Virus record (IMG/VR): IMGVR_UViG_3300031823_000008
Coordinates: 1 to 64,000 of that record
DNA: 64,000 nt
Source of the DNA: a virus
Direction: 5' to 3' (one strand)
Shown: positions 3,318 through 60,012 of the stretch, one piece after another
Numbering within the stretch: the stretch's first letter is position 1
How the letters are laid out: each line of letters starts with the position of its first letter
Notes under the pieces: generated by a model
Told to the model about the DNA's origin: nothing
Databases searched by the model: none
The model's input: the letters and a program-made list of their open reading frames with translations, nothing else
Program-made: the position numbers and the translations under genes

Positions 3318-3601
3318 ACATGCTTCGCGCGGGACTCGCCCAAGATACTCCCTGGTTTAGCGGGATGCGTTTCATTCTTGCCAGGGCATTGGATCGATGC
3401 GCCGACTTTATCCGCCCGACGGCGAGCATGTCCGATATTCGGATGGGCATGACGCCAAAGCAGGACCGCAAAGTTAGAGCGGCAATTGTTGGAACATTCG
3501 GACCCCGCGAACCTATCTGCCTCCCGTTGCGATATGCCATTCCGGTAAGCGACTTGACGGCAAAGGACATCTCCGAATACCAGGAGTGGGGAGGCCGTTG
3601 A
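3314..3601 (+). CDS. small hypothetical protein
   Basis: 95 residues. The ATG at 3314 overlaps the previous stop (ATGA) and follows GGGGAGGGG, so this start is preferred to longer in-frame starts inside the upstream gene. Rich in Arg and Met, with no recognised domain. Position in the head module suggests a minor virion or assembly role. Confidence 0.62.
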   Translation: MNMLRAGLAQDTPWFSGMRFILARALDRCADFIRPTASMSDIRMGMTPKQDRKVRAAIVGTFGPREPICLPLRYAIPVSDLTAKDISEYQEWGGR

Positions 3602-3606
3602 AAACT

Positions 3607-4668
3607 ATGCTATTCTCATTTCGGAGTTCTCGAAGTCGCCTGCGATCAGCAGGTAGTCGTACCAGGGCTACCCTCGCAGTTTGTACAGAGTTACTCCTCG
3701 CGTTATTCCTGTGCGGGTGCGTCCTGCCCGCTCAGGAGATTAGCGACCACTCCGTCGATTCCAAAACCATCCCCTGGCGATTTGCATATCTCGAACCGGG
3801 ATCCTGTGCCCTCGGCGAAGCCTATCTGAACGTCACGACGGGGCATTTGCGATGGTGCTCTTCGCCCAATACCTGGACCGATCTTCTCGGCGGCGGCGCC
3901 GGAATCTCCGCATGTTCCACGACCCCTCCCACCGCGGGAACCGCAGGACAGGTCTGCCTCGATAGCACCAGCACTCTCCAGGCGTGCCATCAGTCGGGCG
4001 CATGCTCGGTGAGCGGCGATTGGCACGCGGCCGGGAGTTCGTCTCTCACCAATTACTCGACGATTGCGGCACTGACCGGGTATCCGGCCTCCTTTACTCC
4101 GACTGCCCATGCGGCGAGTCATGCGAGTGGCGGAACCGATGCCGTGACGCTGATAGAGTCGCAGGTGACGAACCTACCCTCCGACCTTGCGGCGAAGCAG
4201 GCGACGCTGACCAATTATTCGAGCGTCTCGGCATTGACCGGGTATCCGGCGTCATTCACTCCCACCGCTCACGCGGCATCTCACGCCTCGGGCGGAAGCG
4301 ATCCCGTCACGCTGCTGGAATCGCAGATCACCAACCTTACGGCAGATCTCGCCGCAAGGGCGCTAACGGTGGCCACCGGGACCACTGCTACGAGCGGAGC
4401 CGGGTCAATCAGCAATTTGGGATCGATCACGAGCGCCACCTGTCAAACCCTGACCATCACTTCAGCCAGCGTTTTGAGCACCGATGTTTTGAGCGCGAGT
4501 GCCGTGGGGAACATCGGAGCACTGACTGGGTTCGTTCCAGCGACGACGGGTGGATTGACGATAAGCCCCTGGGCAGGCAGCGGAAACGTAAATTTCGAGG
4601 TCTGCAACTGGACGGCCAGCGCCATCACTTCGGGGAATGTCCGACTTAACTGGAGGGTGGCCCGATAA
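3607..4668 (+). CDS. exported fibre-like protein with tandem 54-residue repeats
   Basis: 353 residues from the ATG at 3607 (GGGGAGG 12 bp upstream; a GTG at 3586 in the same frame is an alternative). After a basic N-terminus there is a hydrophobic segment with LLLALFLCGC, resembling a signal peptide with a possible lipobox. Residues about 147-254 are two tandem 54-residue repeats with AHAASHASGG, a motif common in phage tail and head fibres. A signal peptide on a fibre-like protein is unusual and recurs later in this genome. Probable role: surface fibre or decoration. Confidence 0.65.
   Translation: MLFSFRSSRSRLRSAGSRTRATLAVCTELLLALFLCGCVLPAQEISDHSVDSKTIPWRFAYLEPGSCALGEAYLNVTTGHLRWCSSPNTWTDLLGGGAGISACSTTPPTAGTAGQVCLDSTSTLQACHQSGACSVSGDWHAAGSSSLTNYSTIAALTGYPASFTPTAHAASHASGGTDAVTLIESQVTNLPSDLAAKQATLTNYSSVSALTGYPASFTPTAHAASHASGGSDPVTLLESQITNLTADLAARALTVATGTTATSGAGSISNLGSITSATCQTLTITSASVLSTDVLSASAVGNIGALTGFVPATTGGLTISPWAGSGNVNFEVCNWTASAITSGNVRLNWRVAR
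4045..4368 (+). repeat. two tandem 162-bp coding repeats in fibre-like gene
   Basis: Units at 4045-4206 and 4207-4368 each encode 54 residues beginning LTNYS and containing TGYPASFTPTAHAASHASGG. The proteins are about 80% identical, whereas the DNA has diverged at many synonymous sites, so the duplication is not recent. Confidence 0.85.
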
Positions 4669-43471: not shown

Positions 43472-43816
43472 CTAGCCCTCCGGTCCTTTCTCCGGCTCCG
43501 CATCGGGGTTCACGGGGGACTGGATCGCCATAAAAGTCTTCAGCGCCGACTGCGCCGCCTGACGCTTGGTCATACCCTGAGGGTCGCCTTCGTCGGAACC
43601 GGCGATGAAACAACTGCAGCGGCCTTCAATGTGCGCCACCGATCCGACGACGGAGCGAAAGCCGCACTCAAAATGCACGGCATCCGAAAATGCCGGATGC
43701 CGGTCGTATTGCTCCAGGGCTTCTCCGCACCAGGTACAGCGCGTTAACCCGACCCGCGATCCAGTCCCTCGTGAACCCACGCCGGCGGAAGACAGCATCT
43801 CAGGGCTAAACCTCAT
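43472..43816 (-). CDS. zinc-binding early protein
   Basis: 114 residues from the ATG at 43816, supported by GGAGGAG directly upstream. The motif CTWCGEALEQ..., HFECGFRSVVGSVAHIEGRCSCF gives two Cys pairs plus His, matching a small phage/bacterial zinc-binding family of unknown function. The C-terminus is helical then Pro/Glu-rich. Confidence 0.7.
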   Translation of the reverse strand: MRFSPEMLSSAGVGSRGTGSRVGLTRCTWCGEALEQYDRHPAFSDAVHFECGFRSVVGSVAHIEGRCSCFIAGSDEGDPQGMTKRQAAQSALKTFMAIQSPVNPDAEPEKGPEG

Positions 43817-47468: not shown

Positions 47469-47758
47469 TGCAATTGAAAGAGCACGCCGGAACTATCACG
47501 GCTCTCAATATATTCGGCTGGATTGCAGCAATTCTCGCGCCCCTCCTGGGAGCATACTGCTGGCTCGTGGCTCAAAACGGCGCGGAGGATAGCGCGGCGA
47601 TGCGGCCGCTCCTGTTCGCAGCGGGGGCCAGCTTCATATTCGGTCTCGTGCTGATTGGCTTGTCTGCCTTAATCGAAATCTCCGCGGAAGTTTCCAGGGC
47701 GGCGCATCTATTACTCGAAGAATCGAGATCGCGAGCAGCGGAGGCCACGCTGAAATAG
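47465..47758 (+). CDS. two-helix membrane protein, possible partner of the 47172 gene
   Basis: 97 residues with two hydrophobic segments (LNIFGWIAAILAPLLGAYCWL and LLFAAGASFIFGLVLIGLSAL) and an acidic/basic helical tail. Same topology and length as the preceding protein, so the two may act together. No family was recognised. Confidence 0.66.
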   Translation: MMQLKEHAGTITALNIFGWIAAILAPLLGAYCWLVAQNGAEDSAAMRPLLFAAGASFIFGLVLIGLSALIEISAEVSRAAHLLLEESRSRAAEATLK

Positions 47759-47763
47759 CCCCC

Positions 47764-48107
47764 TTGCAGAGTGTGGGTAGAAATGAGCATTGAAGAAAAT
47801 CTGCTTCTCGACTTCTCGGAGCTACGCTGGCTGGTAATCTCCTGTACGGATTGCCACACGGAAGTATCCATTGACGCCGCAGAGACCAGTACCGCAATCC
47901 CATCTCAGTGCCCAAGCTGCAACAGGAGCTATGAGGGTTCCGTTCGCCAGAACCTCGACACCTTTCGCCGGCTCTACGCTACGGCCAGGTGGAAAGTCCG
48001 GGTCGTCAAAGGGAGCGAACCCCAGAAATAGGCCGCTTGCAGAGTGTGGCTGAAAGTGACGGTTTAGGATGAAAAAACTCTTAAGTCGGCCCTTTTGCAG
48101 AGTGTGG
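47764..48107 (+). repeat. three 13-bp direct repeats TTGCAGAGTGTGG
   Basis: Exact copies lie at 47764-47776, 48037-48049 and 48095-48107. The first two each follow a stop codon closely (AAATAG then GC-rich bases) and flank the 47783-48031 gene, like boundaries of a small cassette. The third lies inside the 31-residue frame at 48069. Confidence 0.85.
47783..48031 (+). CDS. small zinc-ribbon protein
   Basis: 82 residues from the ATG at 47783. ISCTDCHTEVSID...SQCPSCNRSY is a standard four-Cys zinc ribbon, followed by a basic helix (NLDTFRRLYATARWKVRV). Probable nucleic-acid-binding or regulatory protein. It is flanked by 13-bp direct repeats. Confidence 0.7.
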   Translation: MSIEENLLLDFSELRWLVISCTDCHTEVSIDAAETSTAIPSQCPSCNRSYEGSVRQNLDTFRRLYATARWKVRVVKGSEPQK

Positions 48108-49553: not shown

Positions 49554-49736
49554 CTACGCCCCCGCCGCCCTCGGCTTCCGGCGCGACTTCTCCCGTTCGA
49601 GCACGTCGCGCAGCTCAGGAACATGAAGCAGAATCCGCCGCTCCCGGCTCAGTTCCTCATCGGTGAGGCCTTTCAATGCTTCGACGTAGGCGTCCAGACT
49701 TTGATTGAGGGCTTCACGGCGCAGTTGGGCAATCAT
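49554..49736 (-). CDS. small helical protein, start region split from its operon by an insertion
   Basis: 60 residues from the ATG at 49736 (MIAQLRREALNQ, LTDEELSRERRILLHVPELRDVLEREKS). The start codon lies in a 25-bp direct repeat whose other copy (50136-50160) sits 26 bp beyond the receiver gene; there the same start reads only MIAQL before a stop. The gene therefore probably belonged to the 50878-50186 operon before the 49751-50135 segment was inserted. Confidence 0.6.
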   Translation of the reverse strand: MIAQLRREALNQSLDAYVEALKGLTDEELSRERRILLHVPELRDVLEREKSRRKPRAAGA

Positions 49737-49773
49737 ATGTGCAGGATACACTTTCAAAAATCAGGAAGAAGCT

Positions 49774-49992
49774 TCAAGGCGTGATTCGCGGCAACGGGGT
49801 GTGATCTGCTGACCGGAATTCTCGGCCCGGGGTAGACGCCATGCGGCCAAACCGTCGGCGAAGCGCCGCTGGCCGATGGCGCGGACAGCGCTTCGATGGA
49901 CCCGGAGCCAGCGGCTTCAACGGGATGGGTCCGAGGCAGTAGGGGCAGCCGTGCAGCGGCACGATCCGCCGGCAGCGGCGGCATCTCTTCAT
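49774..49992 (-). CDS. small zinc-finger cargo protein inside the cassette
   Basis: 72 residues: MKRCRRCRRIVPLHGCPYCLG gives a CxxC/CxxC ribbon, followed by a basic Pro/Arg-rich tail whose coding sequence overlaps the 49785-49881 hairpin element. The ribosome binding site is unclear. Resembles small phage zinc-ribbon proteins. Confidence 0.45.
   Translation of the reverse strand: MKRCRRCRRIVPLHGCPYCLGPIPLKPLAPGPSKRCPRHRPAALRRRFGRMASTPGREFRSADHTPLPRITP
49785..49881 (+). repeat. two-hairpin element, copy A1
   Basis: Starts TTCGCGGCAAC. CGCCAT (49837-49842) and CGGCC (49844-49848) pair with GGCCG (49871-49875) and ATGGCG (49876-49881), enclosing AAACCGT and an inner hairpin CGGCG-AAG-CGCCG (49856-49868). 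It differs from copy A3 only by paired changes in the inner hairpin. Confidence 0.8.
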
Positions 49993-50011
49993 GCTCCATC
50001 ATGCGCCCAAT

Positions 50012-50113
50012 GCCCGGCGGACGGGCAGCGCTGCATCGGCGACGGTTTGACCGTCCGCTCTCCCCCCGGGCGCACCGTCCTGCCCCAGCAGCACCCACCT
50101 TGTTGCCGCGATA
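50012..50113 (-). repeat. two-hairpin element, copy B1 (reverse)
   Basis: GCGGACGG (50017-50024) pairs with CCGTCCGC (50051-50058) around an inner hairpin CGCTG-CAT-CGGCG (50029-50041). A second hairpin (CTGC-CCCA-GCAG type) lies near 50080. The outer end reads TTGCCGCG, the reverse of the A-type end. The conserved internal loop reads TCAAACCGT on the reverse strand. Confidence 0.75.
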
Positions 50114-50185
50114 AACAGGAGCATGCCGTCACAACTGGGCAATCATATGTGCAGGATACAGGGAATTGGCAGGTAGGCTGGAAGG

Positions 50186-50584
50186 TTATCGGCCGGAGCC
50201 GGCATGCGATCCCGGTTCAGCCTTCACCCGCTCCAGCAGAGCTTTCACCCGCGCCAGCAGATCTGCCTTCAGGTGATCCTTCTCGAGGATCTGCCACCCG
50301 CCATGCAGCACGGCCAGGTCCCCGTCGGCCTTCCCGGTTAGCAGGATCACCCGCATCGCCGGCCACGCCTCCTTCAATTTCTCCGCCACATCGGTGCCCA
50401 GGATCCCCGGCAGGATTACGTTGGCCAGCAAGAGATCGATGGGGCGCGGAAAGGCGAGCCCGATGCGAAGACCGTCCTTTCCGGTTTTGGCCGACAGGAT
50501 TTCATAGGCCTCCGCCTCGAGCAGGATGCTCTTTACCAGCTTCAGGATGGCTGGATCGTCTTCGACAATCAGAATCGTTCTCAT
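50186..50584 (-). CDS. degenerate response-regulator receiver protein
   Basis: 132 residues with the receiver fold: acidic pocket VEDD (8-10), LLLANVILPG where the phosphoacceptor Asp is replaced by Asn55, switch Thr in LLTGKA (T83) and the conserved Lys in LEKDH (K102). Without the Asp it cannot be phosphorylated normally, so it may act as a constitutive or decoy receiver. A stand-alone LuxR domain gene lies 3 bp upstream. Probably captured from the host. Confidence 0.8.
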   Translation of the reverse strand: MRTILIVEDDPAILKLVKSILLEAEAYEILSAKTGKDGLRIGLAFPRPIDLLLANVILPGILGTDVAEKLKEAWPAMRVILLTGKADGDLAVLHGGWQILEKDHLKADLLARVKALLERVKAEPGSHAGSGR

Positions 50585-50587
50585 AGC

Positions 50588-50878
50588 TCAGGCAGCGCTC
50601 CTCATGCCTTTGCAAAACGGCGAATCACAGGCGCACCCTTTGGGATGCAACCCGGGCAAACAGTCCCTCCCCCGGATCAATGCGGCGGGATGCTGGAGTG
50701 CATAGACTACCAGTTGGGACCTCGAAACTTGGGCTTTCCTGCAGATATCGGCAATGTGGGAGTTTACGGTGTTAACGGTGATTTCGAGCTCGTGTGCGAT
50801 TATCTTCGCCGGTGAGCCCAGGCAGATCAATTCGAGAATCTCGCGTCTGCGCCTGCTCAACGTGAAGGTTTGCCTCAA
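50588..50878 (-). CDS. stand-alone LuxR/GerE helix-turn-helix protein
   Basis: 96 residues. LSRRRREILELICLGSPAKIIAHELEITVNTVNSHIADICRK is a full GerE domain; the C-terminus has CACDSPFC, a possible metal site. It immediately precedes the receiver gene, so the two halves of a NarL-type response regulator appear as separate proteins. Likely a transcription regulator of phage or host genes. Confidence 0.78.
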   Translation of the reverse strand: MRQTFTLSRRRREILELICLGSPAKIIAHELEITVNTVNSHIADICRKAQVSRSQLVVYALQHPAALIRGRDCLPGLHPKGCACDSPFCKGMRSAA

Positions 50879-50973
50879 ATAAACTTCCGCATTTCATACG
50901 CCAGTCTCCAGAATACCCAGATTTAAAGCTTATACACATAGCCCGCAACCTCCGCCGGGCGCATCATTGGACC

Positions 50974-51387
50974 GTGGCAACTTCCGAACAGATCGCCATA
51001 TTTGATGAATTTGGCGATCTTTATCAGGAAAGTCAGATATGGGCACCCAAGCAAAAGCGCCTCGACGCTCTCAAAGAAACGATCCGAAGCTGGTACCCCG
51101 ATGAGGAATTGCATCCGAGCCGTTGGGCTTACCCGGAAGGCAACCGGTTCGTAATCCAGATCGATCCCCGGCCTTTCGAGAAGTCCTGGGTCTCCATGGC
51201 CAAGGTCTGCAAGGCCGCCGGCGGGATGCGAGCCGTTCTCGCAATTTGCGACGTGACATTCAAGGCATTGGCCGGAGTAGTCGGCAACTCCGCCGCGGAA
51301 GCGCTCCAGATCGAAGCCCGCACCGGCAAACGCAAGATCAAAGCCATTCAGCGATTGATTGCTGTCGAAATGCCCAAGGCAGCGTAA
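50974..51387 (+). CDS. hypothetical phage protein
   Basis: 137 residues from GTG 50974. N-terminal IAIFDEFGDLYQESQIWAPKQKRLDAL, then a compact alpha-beta region and a basic C-terminus (KRKIKAIQRLIAVEM). Divergent from the LuxR gene across 95 bp. No family was recognised. Confidence 0.7.
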   Translation: MATSEQIAIFDEFGDLYQESQIWAPKQKRLDALKETIRSWYPDEELHPSRWAYPEGNRFVIQIDPRPFEKSWVSMAKVCKAAGGMRAVLAICDVTFKALAGVVGNSAAEALQIEARTGKRKIKAIQRLIAVEMPKAA

Positions 51388-51473
51388 GACCTCACCGTGA
51401 GATTCGGAAAGTAACCCTTTCGATCCCACAAGACCGCCGGGCCGGTCTCTAAAATAGTCCGCCCCCCAAAATC

Positions 51474-51806
51474 ATGAACACAGTCGCGTCAACTCGCATT
51501 CCCGTATGCAATGGCGAGGGTGTCATTGTCGAACGTGTGGGGCAGGACTCGGTTCGCGCACGCCGTCTGGCCGAAGCGCCGAACGCGACCGTGGTCCGCA
51601 AGCGCAGGGGGCCAATCGTCAGGATCCTGCTGAAATCCGTGGCGGATAATTCGGGAGAAACTTCCCTCCGCGGCAATCCGCGCGCGATGAGCCACGATCA
51701 CGAGACGGATGTGAATCCTCGGAACGTGTGGATATTGAAACATATCGTCAGCTCCGCAGCCGATCTCTTCGACACTGTTGTCAATGAGTTGAAAACGGCC
51801 GCCTGA
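51474..51806 (+). CDS. hypothetical protein
   Basis: 110 residues. A conserved-looking N-terminal part (NGEGVIVERVGQDSVRARRLAEAPNATVVRKRRGPIVRILL) seems to be a small beta-rich, basic domain. It shares one base with the next gene (TGATG). Function unknown. Confidence 0.66.
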   Translation: MNTVASTRIPVCNGEGVIVERVGQDSVRARRLAEAPNATVVRKRRGPIVRILLKSVADNSGETSLRGNPRAMSHDHETDVNPRNVWILKHIVSSAADLFDTVVNELKTAA

Positions 51807-52075
51807 TGCCGAATCGCAATAACCGCTGCTCCTGCGGAATCTGTCCGGCCTGTGCGCGCAGCATCGCGTTCTCCGCCATGCGCTCCGGCCGTTCCGTCTG
51901 CCGGTGTGGCTTCGCAAATTGCGATTGCGCCCGATGGGAACGGATCTATCGCGAGAAGTTCGAGGATCCGGATTATTACGACCTGGTCGACCAGCTCAAG
52001 TATCCCAGAACTTCGAACATCACCGAGCAGTATCGCTTTCTTCCGCCGCACAGCGGCCCCTCCGAGACCCTATGA
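51806..52075 (+). CDS. Cys-rich zinc protein
   Basis: 89 residues. CSCGICPACARS and CRCGFANCDCARW give at least eight Cys, then an acidic/aromatic helix (EKFEDPDYYDLVDQLKY). It overlaps the glycosyltransferase gene by 4 bp (ATGA). Zinc-binding; role unknown. Confidence 0.72.
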   Translation: MPNRNNRCSCGICPACARSIAFSAMRSGRSVCRCGFANCDCARWERIYREKFEDPDYYDLVDQLKYPRTSNITEQYRFLPPHSGPSETL

Positions 52076-52842
52076 AATTAGAAGCAGTCATCACGTGCGT
52101 GAATTACGGGGATTTTCTCGCTCACACCCTCCCCTACAACAAGGCGCAGTTCGACAATCTCGTGGTTGTCACCGCGCCAACTGACAACCTGACCCGCCGA
52201 GTCTGCGAATTCCATCACGTCACCTGCATCTTGACGGATGAATATCAGGCCCACTGGGGCAAGTTCAGGAAGGGGGCGGGAATCAATGTTGGCCTGAAGG
52301 CTTTGGAGTGCTCGGACTGGATCGTGCAGCTCGATGCCGACATGGCTATGCCTCCGATGTTCCGCCGCGTGATTGAAACTGCGGACCTGGACAAGTCCTG
52401 CCTCTATGGCATCGACCGCTTCATGGTGCCCTCCTTTGATGCGTGGCTGCAATTCATGACCTGCCCGGCGCTCCAGCATGAGAATGGCTCGTGGATACAC
52501 ACCGAAGCGTTCCCGCTGGGCACGCGCGTGTGGCTGCCGCACACCGGCGGCTATGTGCCGATCGGGTTCTTCCAGCTCTGGAATAAAGCTGCAGGCGTCG
52601 AAGCCTATCCGGCGACGCATGACACGGCTGCCCGCGGAGACATTCAGTTTGCGCAACTCTGGCCCCGCAACAAACGCCACATGCTGCCCGAGATTATCGG
52701 CTATCACCTGGAAAGCGAAGCGGCAACCCACGGCGCGAATTGGAATGGGCGTGTGACCAATCGCTTCGGGCCCGATCCGATCTTCAGCCCACCGGTGGCT
52801 CGGCCGAAGCCTCCCCAGAGCGATCCGGAAGAGGACTACTAG
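52072..52842 (+). CDS. GT-A-fold glycosyltransferase (family 2-like)
   Basis: 256 residues from the ATG at 52072. The Rossmann-like start EAVITCVNYGDFL, the nucleotide-sugar region (VVVTAPTDN...), and LDADMAMP (D88-D90, DxD-type metal site) identify a GT-A glycosyltransferase. Phage-borne enzymes like this modify the host surface to exclude other phages or glycosylate phage DNA or proteins. The substrate cannot be told from sequence. Confidence 0.78.
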   Translation: MKLEAVITCVNYGDFLAHTLPYNKAQFDNLVVVTAPTDNLTRRVCEFHHVTCILTDEYQAHWGKFRKGAGINVGLKALECSDWIVQLDADMAMPPMFRRVIETADLDKSCLYGIDRFMVPSFDAWLQFMTCPALQHENGSWIHTEAFPLGTRVWLPHTGGYVPIGFFQLWNKAAGVEAYPATHDTAARGDIQFAQLWPRNKRHMLPEIIGYHLESEAATHGANWNGRVTNRFGPDPIFSPPVARPKPPQSDPEEDY

Positions 52843-52863
52843 GGCTCGGGTACGATTTCTGCG

Positions 52864-53154
52864 ATGCAAATTGATTACAAAATCGACCTCGGGCACATCC
52901 TGACCGCGGCGGTACTCTTGCTCGGTTTCGCCGTCCAGTACGGGTCCCTGTCGAATCGTCTGACCGTGGTCGAAGTACAAGCAGCAAAGGCGTCCGCCAC
53001 CAACGAGACGCTGGTGCTGACGCTGAATTCCCTCCAGGTCACCATCACGCGTGTGCAGACCCAGATGGATGAAAGAGAGAAGCGGATTGACGAATCGGTC
53101 ACCGCCCAGAATCTGCTCGAAGACCGGCGCGATATCCGCAGGGGCATCAAGTGA
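52864..53154 (+). CDS. membrane-anchored coiled-coil protein
   Basis: 96 residues: a hydrophobic segment near the N-terminus (ILTAAVLLLGFAVQYG) followed by a coiled coil (RLTVVEVQAAKASATNETLVL...QTQMDEREKRIDE). The same anchor-plus-coil design as the 48553 protein. Might be a spanin-like or superinfection-related protein. Overlaps the next frame (GTGA). Confidence 0.68.
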   Translation: MQIDYKIDLGHILTAAVLLLGFAVQYGSLSNRLTVVEVQAAKASATNETLVLTLNSLQVTITRVQTQMDEREKRIDESVTAQNLLEDRRDIRRGIK

Positions 53155-53252
53155 TTCCGATCGAGCAATGGCCGGAACCTGAGATCTATGAGCTGTTGAG
53201 CTGGGATCTTCCTGGTCAGCGCTCGAAGATCAGGCAGCGGCCTAAGGTGTGA
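53151..53252 (+). CDS. 33-residue peptide ending in repeat element A2
   Basis: Starts at GTG 53151 overlapping the previous stop (GTGA) and encodes MIPIEQWPEPEIYELLSWD and a basic tail, stopping at TGA 53250-53252, directly at the left edge of the A2 element. It may be the 5' part of a gene truncated when the element arrived. Confidence 0.4.
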   Translation: MIPIEQWPEPEIYELLSWDLPGQRSKIRQRPKV

Positions 53253-53303
53253 TTCGCGGCAAGCGGGTGTGATCTGGTCGCCTAAGAGGCGCTGGCCGAT
53301 GGC
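53253..53303 (+). repeat. two-hairpin element, truncated solo copy A2
   Basis: TTCGCGGCAAGCGGGTGTG joins directly to the inner hairpin CGCCTAAGAGGCG and the right half of the outer stem (GGCCGATGGC). About 46 bp present in A1/A3, including the left half of the outer stem, are missing. No facing B copy was found nearby. Confidence 0.72.
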
Positions 53304-53305
53304 AG

Positions 53306-53617
53306 TCAGGCTGACGCGATCGCGGACCGAAAGTAGACGATCTTTTGGAAACAGGCCATATGGAATTGTGCCTGTTTCACGTGCTTGCCCTTGCCCTGAA
53401 ATAAGATCACCGGCACCCGATCACGGCATAGCCCGCAATCACCGCAATCCTCCGGGTGGTCATCCCATCGAGGATCGTCTTCCGAAACGCCGATAGGCTC
53501 CCGGCATAGGGCGCAGCAGCACTCCGGATCTTTGCATCCAGGCTCGCCGCATGAACCGCGCGACGACCAGCGAATAGCGCCAAGGTATTGGGGCTTTATC
53601 TGGAAATCAAGAGCCAT
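53306..53617 (-). CDS. Cys-rich zinc protein
   Basis: 103 residues. Many Cys in CGEPGCKDPECCCALC and DCGDCGLCRDR, a further His/Cys pair (FHMACF) near the C-terminus, and no membrane segments. Resembles small phage zinc proteins with a FHxxC end. It lies directly right of the solo A2 element. Function unknown. Confidence 0.66.
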   Translation of the reverse strand: MALDFQIKPQYLGAIRWSSRGSCGEPGCKDPECCCALCREPIGVSEDDPRWDDHPEDCGDCGLCRDRVPVILFQGKGKHVKQAQFHMACFQKIVYFRSAIASA

Positions 53618-53623
53618 AGAACC

Positions 53624-54505
53624 ATGAATATCAAACCCATTCGCGACGTGCTGGTCTGCCTCGCCCTCGCCGCGTTACTCGCAGTCCTGGTGCAGACCGC
53701 CCTCGCTGTCCATTCCGTCAATCTCGCCGTGGCCAGTCTGCCGGCGCAGCTCACCGGGATCCGCCAGGATCTGACCTCCCAGCTTTCGCGTGTGGTGGAC
53801 GGCGATCCGCGAAGCCTGGATATCGAAGACAAAGTACCGTTGCGCGCGCTCTTACTGACGTTTCTGAACGGCCAGATTCGCGGTTTGCGAAGCGATACCA
53901 GCAAACAGCTTACCGCCATCGAATTCGATGCCATGACAGCGATTCGCGAGCAGGGTTCAGCCCTGAACGGCCAGGTGGCCGAAGCGTTGAAGATCACCAA
54001 TGCGCGGACCGGGCAGGCCCTCGACCAGCTCGCTGAATTGCGCGCCGATCTGGCGCCGACGTTCAAGAACATGACCAGCATCACGGCTCATGCCGATGAG
54101 GCCGCTGCAATTCTCTTCCGGCGCGACGCGCTTCCGGCGCAAACCCTCGGATTGATCGCGGCCGCCAAAGTCGCCACGGGGCAGACGGCACTGACAATGC
54201 GCGATGTCCAGGACGCGATGCCTCAGATGCTCGCGAGCTTCCAGAAAATCGGCAATAACTCGGACAAGCTCACCGCCGAGACCATCGCCACCGCCAAGGA
54301 ATCGACCAGGCTGGTAAAGAATCTCGCGGACAATACCACCCCGCTGCCGAAGTGGATCCGCTACCCGGCGCAGGTCGTCGGGCTTTTGGGAAGTGCCGCC
54401 CTCCCTGTCATCGGCATTGAAAAGCTGGCCACTACCAGCACCATTTCGAGCACCGTCGTGCAGGTGGTCAACGGCAAGTCCGCTACCGCCAAGTCCAAGG
54501 AGTAA
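53624..54505 (+). CDS. membrane protein with long coiled coil
   Basis: 293 residues from the ATG at 53624. N-terminal membrane segment (VLVCLALAALLAVLVQTALAV), a long helical region (about 35-245) and a second hydrophobic stretch near residues 250-275 (AQVVGLLGSAALPVIGI). It heads a forward group of three genes. Such proteins recur in phages next to small membrane genes; possible lysis or membrane-remodelling role. Confidence 0.68.
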   Translation: MNIKPIRDVLVCLALAALLAVLVQTALAVHSVNLAVASLPAQLTGIRQDLTSQLSRVVDGDPRSLDIEDKVPLRALLLTFLNGQIRGLRSDTSKQLTAIEFDAMTAIREQGSALNGQVAEALKITNARTGQALDQLAELRADLAPTFKNMTSITAHADEAAAILFRRDALPAQTLGLIAAAKVATGQTALTMRDVQDAMPQMLASFQKIGNNSDKLTAETIATAKESTRLVKNLADNTTPLPKWIRYPAQVVGLLGSAALPVIGIEKLATTSTISSTVVQVVNGKSATAKSKE

Positions 54506-54511
54506 TACCCA

Positions 54512-54934
54512 ATGACGTTTTTCACTTCTTTCGAGCATGCGGTAGCCAAGGGCTACGGTGCGCTGAAATCGCTCGGTGTGAGCGATCTTCCCAAGGTTCA
54601 GGCGGCTGTAGCCTTCGCCACCAAATCCATTCCTACCGCTGTAGCTGTGGCCACCGTGATCGATCCGGCGGCAGGCTCGATTATCTCCGCAGTCGGCAAT
54701 GCGTCCAATGCCATGCTGGCGAAAGTTACCGTGGCTCTCAATGACGAGGCGACCATGCAGGCCGCTCTGGCTTCCGGCACTCTGACCATTCAGATCGCAG
54801 CCGACGAAATCAATGATGTGAAGGCTTTGACGCCTTCCGTCCTCGGAGTAGTTTCGGCAATCGGTCTCGGCCACACGATCCCCGTTGTTGTCGCCCCCGT
54901 GGTCCCTTCCGCCCCTCATCCGGTCGCAGGGTAA
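54512..54934 (+). CDS. Ala/Val-rich hypothetical protein
   Basis: 140 residues. Helical with hydrophobic stretches (PTAVAVATVIDPAAGSIISAVGNASNAML) and a Pro-rich hydrophobic end. Likely amphipathic or membrane-associated. Overlaps the next gene by one base (TAATG). Function unknown. Confidence 0.65.
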   Translation: MTFFTSFEHAVAKGYGALKSLGVSDLPKVQAAVAFATKSIPTAVAVATVIDPAAGSIISAVGNASNAMLAKVTVALNDEATMQAALASGTLTIQIAADEINDVKALTPSVLGVVSAIGLGHTIPVVVAPVVPSAPHPVAG

Positions 54935-55083
54935 TGTCTCAAACTCCCATCATCATCGCTCTGGTAGCTCTGGTGCTGGGATTGTCTGCGATTGGAATCG
55001 TGTCAGGGAATGCTGCCGTCCTTACGTTGGCGGCAGCAGCCCTTACTGGATTATTTGCGTTCCTCCAGCATGAGGAGAAGTAG
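54934..55083 (+). CDS. 49-residue two-helix membrane protein
   Basis: From the ATG at 54934: two hydrophobic helices (IIIALVALVLGLSAIGIV and AVLTLAAAALTGLFAFL) and a charged end HEEK. Holin-like in size and topology but several kb from the endolysin. Coupled to the 54512 gene. Confidence 0.6.
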   Translation: MSQTPIIIALVALVLGLSAIGIVSGNAAVLTLAAAALTGLFAFLQHEEK

Positions 55084-55203
55084 GGGCTTTTCGCGGCAAC
55101 GGGGTGTGATCTGCTGACCGGAATTCTCGGCCCGGGGTAGACGCCATGCGGCCAAACCGTCGCCTAAGAGGCGCTGGCCGATGGCGAGAAAGAAAGAATT
55201 TCG

Positions 55204-55650
55204 ATGTATCCGTGTTTCCTGATTGAAGCGATCTACGATGAGCCCGGCAGCATGCTCCCGGACAAAGGATGGGACCCGCTCGGGCGCTCCATCATGGGCT
55301 GGATAAGGAAAGACACGGGCGAGGAACGCCAGCACAACAGTCAGTTCGGCGTCGGCGCTATGTGGTTCGCCACATGGCAATCTCGCAATTGGGACTGGGA
55401 AAACGAGACAGAGCCGCACTTGCTTGTGCGCTGTCCAAACGGCGAGGGTACGCGCGATTGGGATATCGATTCGCGCTGTAGTAACTGCGGGCTCCCCTCA
55501 GACAAAATTCACCGCTGCTGGGTCCGGCACGGAACGCCGCCTCTGATCACCGTAGACAAACACGGCGTCACCTGCAATGCCGGCGCGGGAAGCATAGCGC
55601 TCCCGAAGTGGCATGGGTTTCTCCGCAACGGCAGTTTAGTGCTGGCTTAG
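55204..55650 (+). CDS. conserved phage protein of unknown function (cassette cargo)
   Basis: 148 residues. Conserved-looking parts are WDIDSRCSNCGLP, IHRCWVRHGTPPLITVDKHG and GAGSIALPKWHGFL, which match a protein seen in many phages without known function. The Cys and His residues suggest a metal site. It lies between facing hairpin elements A3 and B2. Confidence 0.7.
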   Translation: MYPCFLIEAIYDEPGSMLPDKGWDPLGRSIMGWIRKDTGEERQHNSQFGVGAMWFATWQSRNWDWENETEPHLLVRCPNGEGTRDWDIDSRCSNCGLPSDKIHRCWVRHGTPPLITVDKHGVTCNAGAGSIALPKWHGFLRNGSLVLA

Positions 55651-55662
55651 CGGTTTCATCAG

Positions 55663-55836
55663 TCAGTCGCCTTCCTTCAACGCCCGGATCGCCCGTTCAG
55701 TGATTGCGAGGCTCGCCTCCAACTTCCCGCGCCGTTCTCCGTGCGCGAACTGCAACCGATAAATGAGAGCCTGCCGATAATCTCTCCTATCTTTTAACTG
55801 CAGCTCCGCCCGGCCTTTCGCGGTCCTCATCCTCAT
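55663..55836 (-). CDS. 57-residue basic helical protein (cassette cargo)
   Basis: From the ATG at 55836 (a second in-frame ATG is at 55830). Arg-rich helix (ELQLKDRRDYRQALIYRLQF...) then LEASLAITERAIRALKEGD. It converges on the 55204 gene inside the cassette. Good helical coding character but no ribosome binding site was confirmed. Confidence 0.48.
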   Translation of the reverse strand: MRMRTAKGRAELQLKDRRDYRQALIYRLQFAHGERRGKLEASLAITERAIRALKEGD

Positions 55837-55957
55837 ACAGCAACCCTACACCCGGCGGACGGGCAGCGCCGCACCGGCGACGGTTTGACCGTCCGCTCTC
55901 CCCCGGGCGCACCGTCCTGCTTAAAGCAGACCACTCTCCGTTGCCGCGAATAACAAA

Positions 55958-57633: not shown

Positions 57634-58522
57634 CCTGGATGGCGGCGGAGTCCGCGGCGCCCTGACCACCTGCTTCCTCGTCGAGCTGGAAAGGCGCACC
57701 GGCAAACTCTGCCGCGAGTACTTCGACCTGGTCGCCGGCACTTCCACGGGCGCTCTGATTGCCACGGCTATCGCTGCCGGCATTCCAGCGACCACCATCC
57801 TCGAAATCTATCAGCAGGACTGCCCGAAGCTGTTCCACCTCTCCACGGTCGAGTCCTGGGCGGAGCGCATCCTCAAGGGTTATGCCTATCACCCGGAAGC
57901 GGTTAAGCAGATCCTGGTGAACCGGCTGGGAGCCTCAGCATCCTGGAAGCTCAACGACTCGCCAGTCCGTCTCCTCCTCACCGCCAAAGGGATGAATGGC
58001 CACCCCTGGTATTTCGTGCGCGACAACCCGAAGAACGCCGGCACCACAGGCGGGCTCTCTCTTCTCGATTGCGCGATCGCCTCGGGAGCAGCTCCCACCT
58101 ATTTCGCGCCCTGGTATGTTTCGCCCGTCTCCATCCTGGTCGGCTGGTGCTTCGACGGAGGAACCGGCATCACCGGCAATCCAGTCCACCAGGCCGTCGT
58201 GGAAGCTTTCCGCTACGATGATTTCGACCCTGCGGATACGCGCGTCATCTCCCTAGGCACCGGCTTTGTTCCGGATCTCCAGACGAATCCGCCTGCAGGT
58301 CTGCTCGACACATTGACCTGGACCATCGACACTTTGCTCGACGCGCCCATCGATGAGCAGAGCAATCTCGTGAATCTCTACTACGCGGGCATCCTGCAGC
58401 GGTATAACTGGCAACTTCCCGCGGCGGTGGATATGGCGGACGCAGGTGCGATCCCCGGCCTTGTGGAGCTGGGCCAAAAGGTCGTGCCGGCGATGGACTG
58501 GGACGCCATTCTCAAGGATTAA
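57617..58522 (+). CDS. patatin-like phospholipase
   Basis: 301 residues. Oxyanion loop DGGGVRG (8-14), nucleophile elbow GTSTG (Ser43) and the catalytic Asp in FDGG near residue 180 make a complete Ser-Asp dyad. No signal peptide, so it acts inside the cell. Patatins hydrolyse membrane lipids; in bacteria they serve as CBASS effectors (CapV), and in a phage one might aid lysis or interfere with host signalling. It lies just before the lysis genes. Confidence 0.85.
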   Translation: MKRILSLDGGGVRGALTTCFLVELERRTGKLCREYFDLVAGTSTGALIATAIAAGIPATTILEIYQQDCPKLFHLSTVESWAERILKGYAYHPEAVKQILVNRLGASASWKLNDSPVRLLLTAKGMNGHPWYFVRDNPKNAGTTGGLSLLDCAIASGAAPTYFAPWYVSPVSILVGWCFDGGTGITGNPVHQAVVEAFRYDDFDPADTRVISLGTGFVPDLQTNPPAGLLDTLTWTIDTLLDAPIDEQSNLVNLYYAGILQRYNWQLPAAVDMADAGAIPGLVELGQKVVPAMDWDAILKD

Positions 58523-58773
58523 GCGGCCCGCTTCGCCGCGGCCCAGCGCCTCTTCTGCGCAAGGCTGATTGCCCGTCTGCCGGCGGCGGTCATTGTGCGA
58601 CGCTTAGGTCTGTTCACCGAGACGCTCGCAGGTCTACTGCCGGGCATCAGGGACGGCTCCAGCATTTCCCGAAGTTCTCGAATCTTCTGATCTATCTGGG
58701 ACTTTTGAAGTTCCATGCCCGCGATCGCCGCTCGCGCTATTGCGGGAGTGAGTTTGTTCGGCATGCCCGACAT
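58519..58773 (-). CDS. small basic DNA-binding-like protein
   Basis: 84 residues from an ATG at 58773 (others in frame at 58764 and TTG 58788). A helical middle (QKSQIDQKIRELREMLEP) is followed by a basic tail RPKRRTMTAAGRRAISLAQKRRW, a pattern common at the C-termini of small soil-bacterial DNA-binding proteins. It overlaps the end of the patatin gene by 4 bp in convergent orientation. Confidence 0.6.
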   Translation of the reverse strand: MSGMPNKLTPAIARAAIAGMELQKSQIDQKIRELREMLEPSLMPGSRPASVSVNRPKRRTMTAAGRRAISLAQKRRWAAAKRAA

Positions 58774-58799
58774 TCTGTCTCGCGACAAACAGGAAATAA

Positions 58800-59290: not shown

Positions 59291-59392
59291 ATGCGCATCG
59301 TGCGCTCGATTCTCTGGATCGCTCTGACCATCGTAGTGATGGCCGCGTTCTTCTATTTGCAGATCCGGATCCTGCTGATTGGTCACAAATGA
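59291..59392 (+). CDS. 33-residue membrane peptide next to the endolysin
   Basis: The ATG at 59291 follows AAGGGACC. One hydrophobic helix (ILWIALTIVVMAAFFYLQIRILL) with a basic start. It overlaps the recombinase start (ATGA). Because it directly follows the endolysin it may be a small holin/pinholin or spanin-like component, but this is an inference. Confidence 0.58.
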   Translation: MRIVRSILWIALTIVVMAAFFYLQIRILLIGHK

Positions 59393-60012
59393 GAATAGCC
59401 ATCTACGCTCGCGTCAGTACTTCTGATCAATCGTGCCAAATGCAGTTGAGCGAGCTCCGATCCTACGCGCAACGCATGGGCTGGGAACCTCCAGTTGAAT
59501 ACGTGGAGACTGCCAGCGGCAAGGCCTTGAGCAAACGTCCGGTTCTGGCGAAGCTCCTGGCCGATGCGCGGCTGCGCAGGTTCGACGTGCTGCTGGTCTG
59601 GAAGCTGGACCGCTTCGGCCGAAGTCTCAAACACATCTGCGAGAATATCGAAACCCTGGACGCTTCCGGAGTCCGCTTCCTATGCCCCTCTCAGGGAATC
59701 GACACCGACAACCGCTCGCCGATGGGCAAGTTCTTCGTTCAGATTCTGGGCGCCTTCGCGGAGCTCGAGCGGGAAATCATCAAAGAGCGGACGATGACGG
59801 GCAAAGCGGAATACAACAAGGCCTTCGACCGCGGCGACATCGGCAAGGTGCGGAACTCGAGGAGCGGGAAGAATCTGCCCAGCCACCGGCCGAAGAAAGT
59901 CTTCCGTCGCGACCTGGCGAAGGAGCTCCGCGAGAGCGGGATGAGCTGGCGCGCCATCGGAAAGCAGCTCGGCGTTCCCCAATCCACGATTCGCCTGGCA
60001 CTGTCGATTTAG
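59389..60012 (+). CDS. serine recombinase (resolvase/invertase family)
   Basis: 207 residues from the ATG at 59389. The catalytic start IYARVSTSDQS holds the nucleophile Ser10; VWKLDRFGRS and AELEREIIKERT are the conserved catalytic and dimer-helix motifs; the C-terminus SWRAIGKQLGVPQSTIRLAL is the Hin-like helix-turn-helix. Small enzymes of this type invert or resolve DNA segments. It lies between lysis and packaging genes and is the genome's second site-specific recombinase. Confidence 0.88.
   Translation: MRIAIYARVSTSDQSCQMQLSELRSYAQRMGWEPPVEYVETASGKALSKRPVLAKLLADARLRRFDVLLVWKLDRFGRSLKHICENIETLDASGVRFLCPSQGIDTDNRSPMGKFFVQILGAFAELEREIIKERTMTGKAEYNKAFDRGDIGKVRNSRSGKNLPSHRPKKVFRRDLAKELRESGMSWRAIGKQLGVPQSTIRLALSI

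What the first reader, a model, noticed from the sequence alone, without database searches (positions are those of the whole stretch)
49785..55951. Family of ~100-nt two-hairpin elements with compensatory base-pair changes
Five related elements (A1 49785, B1 50012 reverse, A2 53253 truncated, A3 55090, B2 55850 reverse) share the end TTCGCGGCAAC, an internal loop AAACCGT and nested stems. A1 and A3 are near-identical over 97 nt; the only four differences I see are two pairs of changes in the inner hairpin (CGGCG/CGCCG versus CGCCT/AGGCG) that keep pairing. A- and B-types keep the outer stem with different sequences. This indicates selection on folding, either as RNA or as single-stranded DNA ends of a mobile element. 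I know of no described family that fits.
Basis: seen in the sequence. Interest (0 to 1): 0.85.

Follow-up and report, generated by a model that had tools for sequence, protein, structure and literature searches.

The report
Hairpin end-repeats bounding phage gene cassettes
A soil phage carries a small family of about 100-base repeats, each with one bulged DNA/RNA hairpin, that sit as inward-facing pairs around small accessory genes missing from a related phage; they resemble the ends of known bacterial REP/TIR mobile repeats, but no relatives and no transposase were found.

Summary
Five related ~97-nt elements exist (A1, A3; A2 with an internal 45-nt deletion; B1, B2 inverted). A1 and A3 differ at four of 97 positions, and these form two compensatory base pairs (simulation: 5 of 400,000 random placements). 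Only the 3' hairpin (H2) is supported; the "first hairpin" is not shared, and whole elements fold no better than shuffles.

The missing piece is context. A and B are the left and right ends of small-gene cassettes (A1...B1, A3...B2; A2 alone). A syntenic relative (L018/L052, ~73% DNA identity) lacks the elements at all three places: two empty sites, one site with other cargo.

H2 has a 3-nt loop and conserved unpaired bases (AACC, U). A conserved G-rich patch lies one base 5' of its stem: GTAG in A; GGAG in B, within GGGGAGAG, which fits the GGGGWSAS motif of TIRs around RAYT-like transposases. It therefore works most like a REP/TIR-type repeat moved in trans. This is inferred: neither the phage nor 12 related records encode a Y1 transposase, and no homologue turned up in IMG/VR, phage or plasmid records, or (one exact-pattern scan) GTDB genomes. 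A leader-RNA role (SAS/ESAS- or PeSL-like) remains open.

The parts
49751..49784 (+). left extension of A1; shares ~28 nt with the left flank of A2 (TCAAAAATCAGG...GTGA), so the unit's left end probably lies here
   Evidence: pairwise alignment
49785..49881 (+). element A1 (left end of cassette 1); hairpin H2 at 49837-49881
49774..49992 (-). cargo ORF of cassette 1, 72 aa, Cys-rich (MKRCRRCRRIVPLHGCPYC...), start 23 nt after B1; no Pfam or phage match
50016..50112 (-). element B1 (right end of cassette 1, inverted); H2 at 50016-50059
49726..49750 (.). 25-nt direct repeat, left copy (start region of the minus-strand gene at 49554-49733)
50136..50160 (.). 25-nt direct repeat, right copy
53253..53303 (+). 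element A2, internal deletion of element positions 25-69; left end of the inserted block 53248-~53605, no B end found
53306..53617 (-). ORF in the block inserted at A2 (103 aa, Cys-rich, no family)
55090..55186 (+). element A3 (left end of cassette 3); H2 at 55142-55186
55204..55650 (+). cargo ORF of cassette 3, 148 aa, start 17 nt after A3; relatives in other phages, no named domain
55663..55836 (-). cargo ORF of cassette 3, 57 aa, start 17 nt after B2
55854..55950 (-). element B2 (right end of cassette 3, inverted); H2 at 55854-55897

Best explanation
The repeats are the two structured ends (A left, B right, facing inward) of small accessory-gene cassettes gained by this phage. Each end carries a conserved outer sequence (TTCGCGGCAAC..GG.G.GTG..CTGC), a conserved G-rich tag (CCCGGGGKAGA) and, one base further, a bulged hairpin (variable stems; constant AACC and U bulges; CGTC before the inner stem; 3-nt loop). 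I infer that the hairpin is read as folded single-stranded DNA, as in REP/TIR repeats of the Y1 (HUH) RAYT/TIRYT transposases, and that a transposase supplied in trans, presumably by the host, moved or multiplied the ends; the cargo in between was exchanged. Shown: copies, inverted pairing, absence of the elements at the three places in the relative, compensatory pairs. Inferred: mobility, single-stranded DNA as the acting form, enzyme type.
For: A copies are all on +, B copies on -, paired A1...B1 (~330 nt) and A3...B2 (~860 nt) with unrelated insides. The syntenic relative L018/L052 lacks the elements at all three places: A1-B1 and A2 blocks are gaps, A3-B2 is replaced by other genes. A1/A2 similarity starts where the direct repeat (A1) or the homology to the relative (A2) ends. 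H2: two compensatory pairs A1/A3, 5/400,000 by simulation; DNA folding gives one shape in A1, A3, B2 and, with a mismatch, B1. Tag: A has GTAG, B has GGAG inside GGGGAGAG; GGGGWSAS occurs only 3 times on that strand of 64 kb, two of them B1 and B2. Literature: GTAG/CGTC-tagged REPs with short loops, compensatory stems and head-to-head dimers, TIRs sharing GGGGWSAS and flanking RAYT-like genes (PMC3733652); TnpA-REP needs tag plus hairpin, and a bulge in one group (PMC8266576).
Against: No Y1 transposase in the phage or 12 related records. No homologous repeat elsewhere, whereas REPs are usually abundant in a host genome. A2 has no B partner. The 25-nt direct repeat does not abut the repeats, and Y1 transposition normally makes no target duplication (own knowledge). 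A similar start-region duplication surrounds another small gene without A/B (47752/48025). The tag resemblance was noticed after the fact; B's GGAG and the ~100-nt length differ from REPs. The A/B outer-stem covariation is not significant alone.
Confidence: 0.45

Rival explanations
1. They are mobile leader elements: structured 5' untranslated regions travelling with phage accessory genes and controlling their expression, and serving as homology for shuffling (functionally like T4 PeSLs or mycobacteriophage SAS/ESAS).
For: A3, B1 and B2 sit 17-23 nt upstream of small ORFs read in the element's direction. The same phages carry a second inward-facing repeat (TTCACGAGGGACTGGATCG), mostly at gene 5' ends, with exchanged cargo. 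SAS/ESAS precedent in PMC3203893.
Against: No sigma-70-like promoter or terminator-like site in the elements. No shared ribosome-binding motif next to the start codons. A1 and A2 lead no convincing gene. Common RNA folding is cleaner on the opposite strand.
Confidence: 0.3
2. They are long terminal inverted repeats of a non-autonomous DDE-type transposon (MITE-like), the hairpin being incidental or a cruciform.
For: Inverted ends of 97 nt, 71% identical; inserted blocks absent in the relative.
Against: Compensatory change without sequence conservation in the stem is not expected for duplex-binding TIRs. No short abutting target duplication at any of the three sites. No DDE transposase among the 26 proteins scanned with Pfam.
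Confidence: 0.1
3. They are recombination sites for the phage's own serine recombinase (59392-60012), which inverts or exchanges the cassettes.
For: A resolvase-type serine recombinase is encoded nearby (PF00239 E 7e-40), and the sites form inverted pairs.
Against: The recombinase is 90% identical in the relative L018, which lacks A/B repeats. A always lies left and B right, with no sign of inversion.
Confidence: 0.05

Closest known systems
GTAG/CGTC-tagged REP repeats and their RAYT (TnpA-REP) transposases
   Same: Short tag one base 5' of an imperfect hairpin, short loop, compensatory stem variants, conserved unpaired bases, inverted (tags outside) pairs.
   Different: ~97 nt with a conserved 50-nt outer part; 4-5 copies, in a phage; B's tag is GGAG; no RAYT in the phage; pairs enclose cargo genes.
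TIRs of TIRtrons (TIR-flanked tyrosine transposases; one sharply defined group is in Acidobacteria)
   Same: Long inverted repeats, some self-complementary, sharing GGGGWSAS; B has GGGGAGAG, A matches 7 of 8.
   Different: No Y1 gene between the repeats; sequences otherwise not comparable here; host phylum not established here.
T4-type PeSL mobile regulatory cassettes
   Same: Repeated intergenic stem-loop modules at borders of shuffled accessory genes.
   Different: PeSLs join a promoter and a terminator stem-loop; neither was detected here.
Cluster K mycobacteriophage SAS/ESAS
   Same: Phage-specific repeats with inverted-repeat parts upstream of small non-structural genes, rare in other phages.
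   Different: SAS is a 13-bp Shine-Dalgarno-like box 3-7 bp from the start codon; A/B have no such box, end 17-23 nt away and come as inward pairs.

Membership tests
GTAG-tagged REP | GTAG tetranucleotide at one end, 5' of the palindrome | tested here: inconclusive
   A: GTAG one base before the stem; B: GGAG
GTAG-tagged REP | short hairpin (20-40 nt) with short loop and compensatory stem variants | tested here: met
   H2 is 44-45 nt (slightly longer), 3-nt loop; A1/A3 double changes
GTAG-tagged REP | high copy number in a genome | tested here: not met
   five copies in the 66-kb phage, none elsewhere found; host genome unknown
GTAG-tagged REP / TIRtron | associated Y1 tyrosine transposase gene | tested here: not met
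   PF01797 absent from the phage and 12 related records; a host gene acting in trans is not testable with these tools
TIRtron TIR | GGGGWSAS motif in the TIR | tested here: inconclusive
   B exact, A 7 of 8; two of only three occurrences on the minus strand
T4 PeSL | early promoter plus terminator stem-loop | tested here: not met
   no promoter- or terminator-like site in the elements; a non-sigma-70 promoter cannot be excluded
SAS/ESAS | Shine-Dalgarno-like 13-bp box 3-7 bp before the start codon | tested here: not met
   elements end 17-23 nt before the ATG without a shared box
any Rfam family | score above the gathering cut-off | tested here: not met
   0 matches in the window
DDE MITE | short target duplication abutting terminal inverted repeats | tested here: not met
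   only a 25-nt direct repeat 34 nt and ~23 nt outside A1/B1; none at the other two sites

The most novel reading that the evidence does not exclude
A phage-borne end-repeat system that packages exchangeable accessory genes between two specialised, structured ends (left type A, right type B), mobilised as single-stranded hairpins by a host HUH transposase. It would be a REP/TIR-like system turned into gene cassettes, with an analogous second family (TTCACGAGGGACTGGATCG) in the same phage lineage.
Probability: 0.2. Interest if true: 0.75.

Novelty: new variant of a known kind. Interest (0 to 1): 0.45.

Why it matters
How phages gain and swap their small accessory genes is mostly unexplained. 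Paired, folded end-repeats around such genes, with sites lacking them in a relative, give a concrete and testable mechanism. They would link phage accessory-gene exchange to the REP/RAYT world, whose own mobility is still debated.

Tried and rejected
Rfam scan: nothing. Homologues by exact patterns in IMG/VR: CCCGGGGN{3,14}CGGYCAAACCGTC and GGYCAAACCGTCGN9CGCTG gave one chance hit each; TCGCGGCAACN{40,64}AAACCGTC gave 24 chance hits by inspection; CAAACCGTCGN9CGCTG gave 57 stretches, none combining outer stem, inner stem and outer motif. GTDB genomes by the outer motif: 0. Blastn of phages and plasmids: none or weak hits; the two plasmid hits looked at (Sinorhizobium, Allorhizobium) lie in reading frames, one of them a repetitive Gln/Glu-rich frame. 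Covariance model on relatives: only the five copies plus marginal hits of score <19 lacking the intact inner stem. The terminase query in genome contigs found no prophage, so host genomes could not be reached; three plasmids of an acidobacterium hold no Y1 gene and cannot serve as a phylum centre. Genes related to cargo 55204 in other phages show no convincing inverted-repeat pair around them. A 7-nt flank repeat at A3/B2 was judged chance.

Full report
The observation. The window is 64,000 bases of a 66,246-base virus record. Five related copies are present as described. A1 and A3 are identical at 93 of 97 positions; the four differences (74, 76, 80, 82) are two base pairs of the inner stem, G-C/C-G and G-C/T-A. 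Random placement of four substitutions gives two or more compensatory pairs in 5 of 400,000 trials. B1 and B2 are 87% identical, and A against B is 71% over 93 nt. H2 is the long 3' hairpin: outer stem, AACC bulge, G-C pair, U bulge, 5-bp inner stem, 3-nt loop. Its DNA folding z-scores are -3.7 (A1), -5.0 (A3), -1.8 (B1), -2.9 (B2). Counted on an alignment, 93.8% of cells pair, against at most 62.5% when partners are slid. Limits: the 5' half has no common fold and whole elements fold like shuffles; the A/B outer-stem changes alone are not significant (null P about 0.3); B1 has a C.A mismatch and both B copies a U.C mismatch. A2 has an internal 45-nt deletion, not an end truncation.

Surroundings. 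All A copies lie on the + strand and all B copies on the - strand, as pairs facing inward: A1 ... B1 around a 72-aa Cys-rich ORF on the minus strand, and A3 ... B2 around a 148-aa ORF (+) and a 57-aa ORF (-). Outside the ends the two cassettes share little beyond a few tens of bases next to the ends. A relative, IMGVR_UViG_3300031718_000022 (L018/L052), is syntenic from about 44.8 to 62 kb at roughly 73-83% DNA identity. At the A1-B1 place it has a short intergenic stretch; at the A2 place homology stops at GCTCGAA and resumes just before the next start codon; at the A3-B2 place it has other genes. So the repeats bound DNA that differs between the two phages. The similarity of A1 and A2 extends ~28 nt to the left of TTCGCGG and begins where the flanking repeat or the homology to the relative ends, so the unit is somewhat longer than the element as described. 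A 25-nt direct repeat flanks cassette 1 but does not abut the ends. A similar 35-nt start-region duplication flanks another small gene at 47771-48031 without A/B, so it may reflect how small genes enter this phage in general.

Relatives of the repeat. None were found in IMG/VR (four pattern scans), GTDB genomes (one exact pattern), phage or plasmid records, or by covariance model in related phages. The pattern scans need exact matches and would miss diverged copies; host genomes could not be reached.

A second repeat of the same style. The relative has four copies of TTCACGAGGGACTGG as two inward-facing pairs. One pair lies at the same locus as a pair in the window (43509-43527 and 43757-43775), with arms 80-87% alike and different cargo between. 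The other sits in the slot that A3-B2 occupies in the window. This suggests that inward repeat pairs around exchangeable small genes are a habit of this phage lineage.

How it may work. Stems vary while the loop size, the AACC and U bulges and the G-rich patch just 5' of the stem are kept. That is the design of REP repeats: a GTAG or CGTC tag next to a hairpin with a short loop and compensatory stems, often in inverted pairs (PMC3733652). It also resembles the long TIRs that flank RAYT-like genes in some species, several of which share GGGGWSAS; the transposases of that kind form a well-defined group in Acidobacteria. A carries GTAG one base before the stem; B carries GGAG inside GGGGAGAG, and GGGGWSAS occurs only three times on that strand of the window, two of them B1 and B2. 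TnpA-REP reads folded single-stranded DNA, needs the tag and, in one group, an unpaired region in the stem (PMC8266576). I therefore favour ends recognised as single-stranded hairpins by a Y1-type transposase supplied in trans. Against it: no Y1 gene in the phage or 12 related records, few copies, B's non-standard tag, and a resemblance noticed after the fact.

Main rival. Three of the elements stand 17-23 nt before small ORFs in their own direction, so they could be leader RNAs that travel with the genes. Against: no promoter, terminator or shared ribosome-binding box, A1 and A2 lead no convincing gene, and as RNA the common fold is cleaner on the opposite strand, where B1's mismatch becomes G.U. 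The two roles can coexist, as many REPs are plausibly transcribed (PMC3733652).

Verdict. A real, small, phage-specific repeat family with one well-supported structured hairpin. Most likely it marks the ends of exchanged accessory-gene cassettes and works like REP/TIR repeats; mobility and the enzyme are unproven.

Noticed in passing
window 43509-43527 (+) and 43757-43775 (-): Inverted pair of GGGTTCACGAGGGACTGGATCG-like arms around a small Cys-containing ORF; the relative L052 (reverse complement 3466-3721) has the same arms with different cargo, and a second pair elsewhere.
   Followed up: partly
window 58519-58788 (-): Small gene (MPNKLT...AISLAQKRRWAA) that in the relative sits in another slot, upstream of the homologue of gene 55958, inside a TTCACGAGGGACTG pair: the same cargo gene at two positions.
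   Followed up: partly
window 47752-47786 and 48025-48059: 35-nt direct repeat (83%) covering gene start regions around a small zinc-ribbon-like ORF, like the 25-nt repeat around cassette 1.
   Followed up: no
L055 1931-3198 and 482-835: Related contig with 50-nt and 37-nt direct repeats at gene borders, spacing about 320-750 nt; another sign of gene shuffling by border repeats.
   Followed up: no
window 59392-60012: Resolvase-type serine recombinase next to the terminase genes, 90% identical in the relative; role unknown.
   Followed up: partly
window 50186-50878 (-): Response-regulator receiver protein and LuxR-type DNA-binding protein encoded next to each other in the phage; the LuxR-type gene is kept in related contigs.
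   Followed up: no
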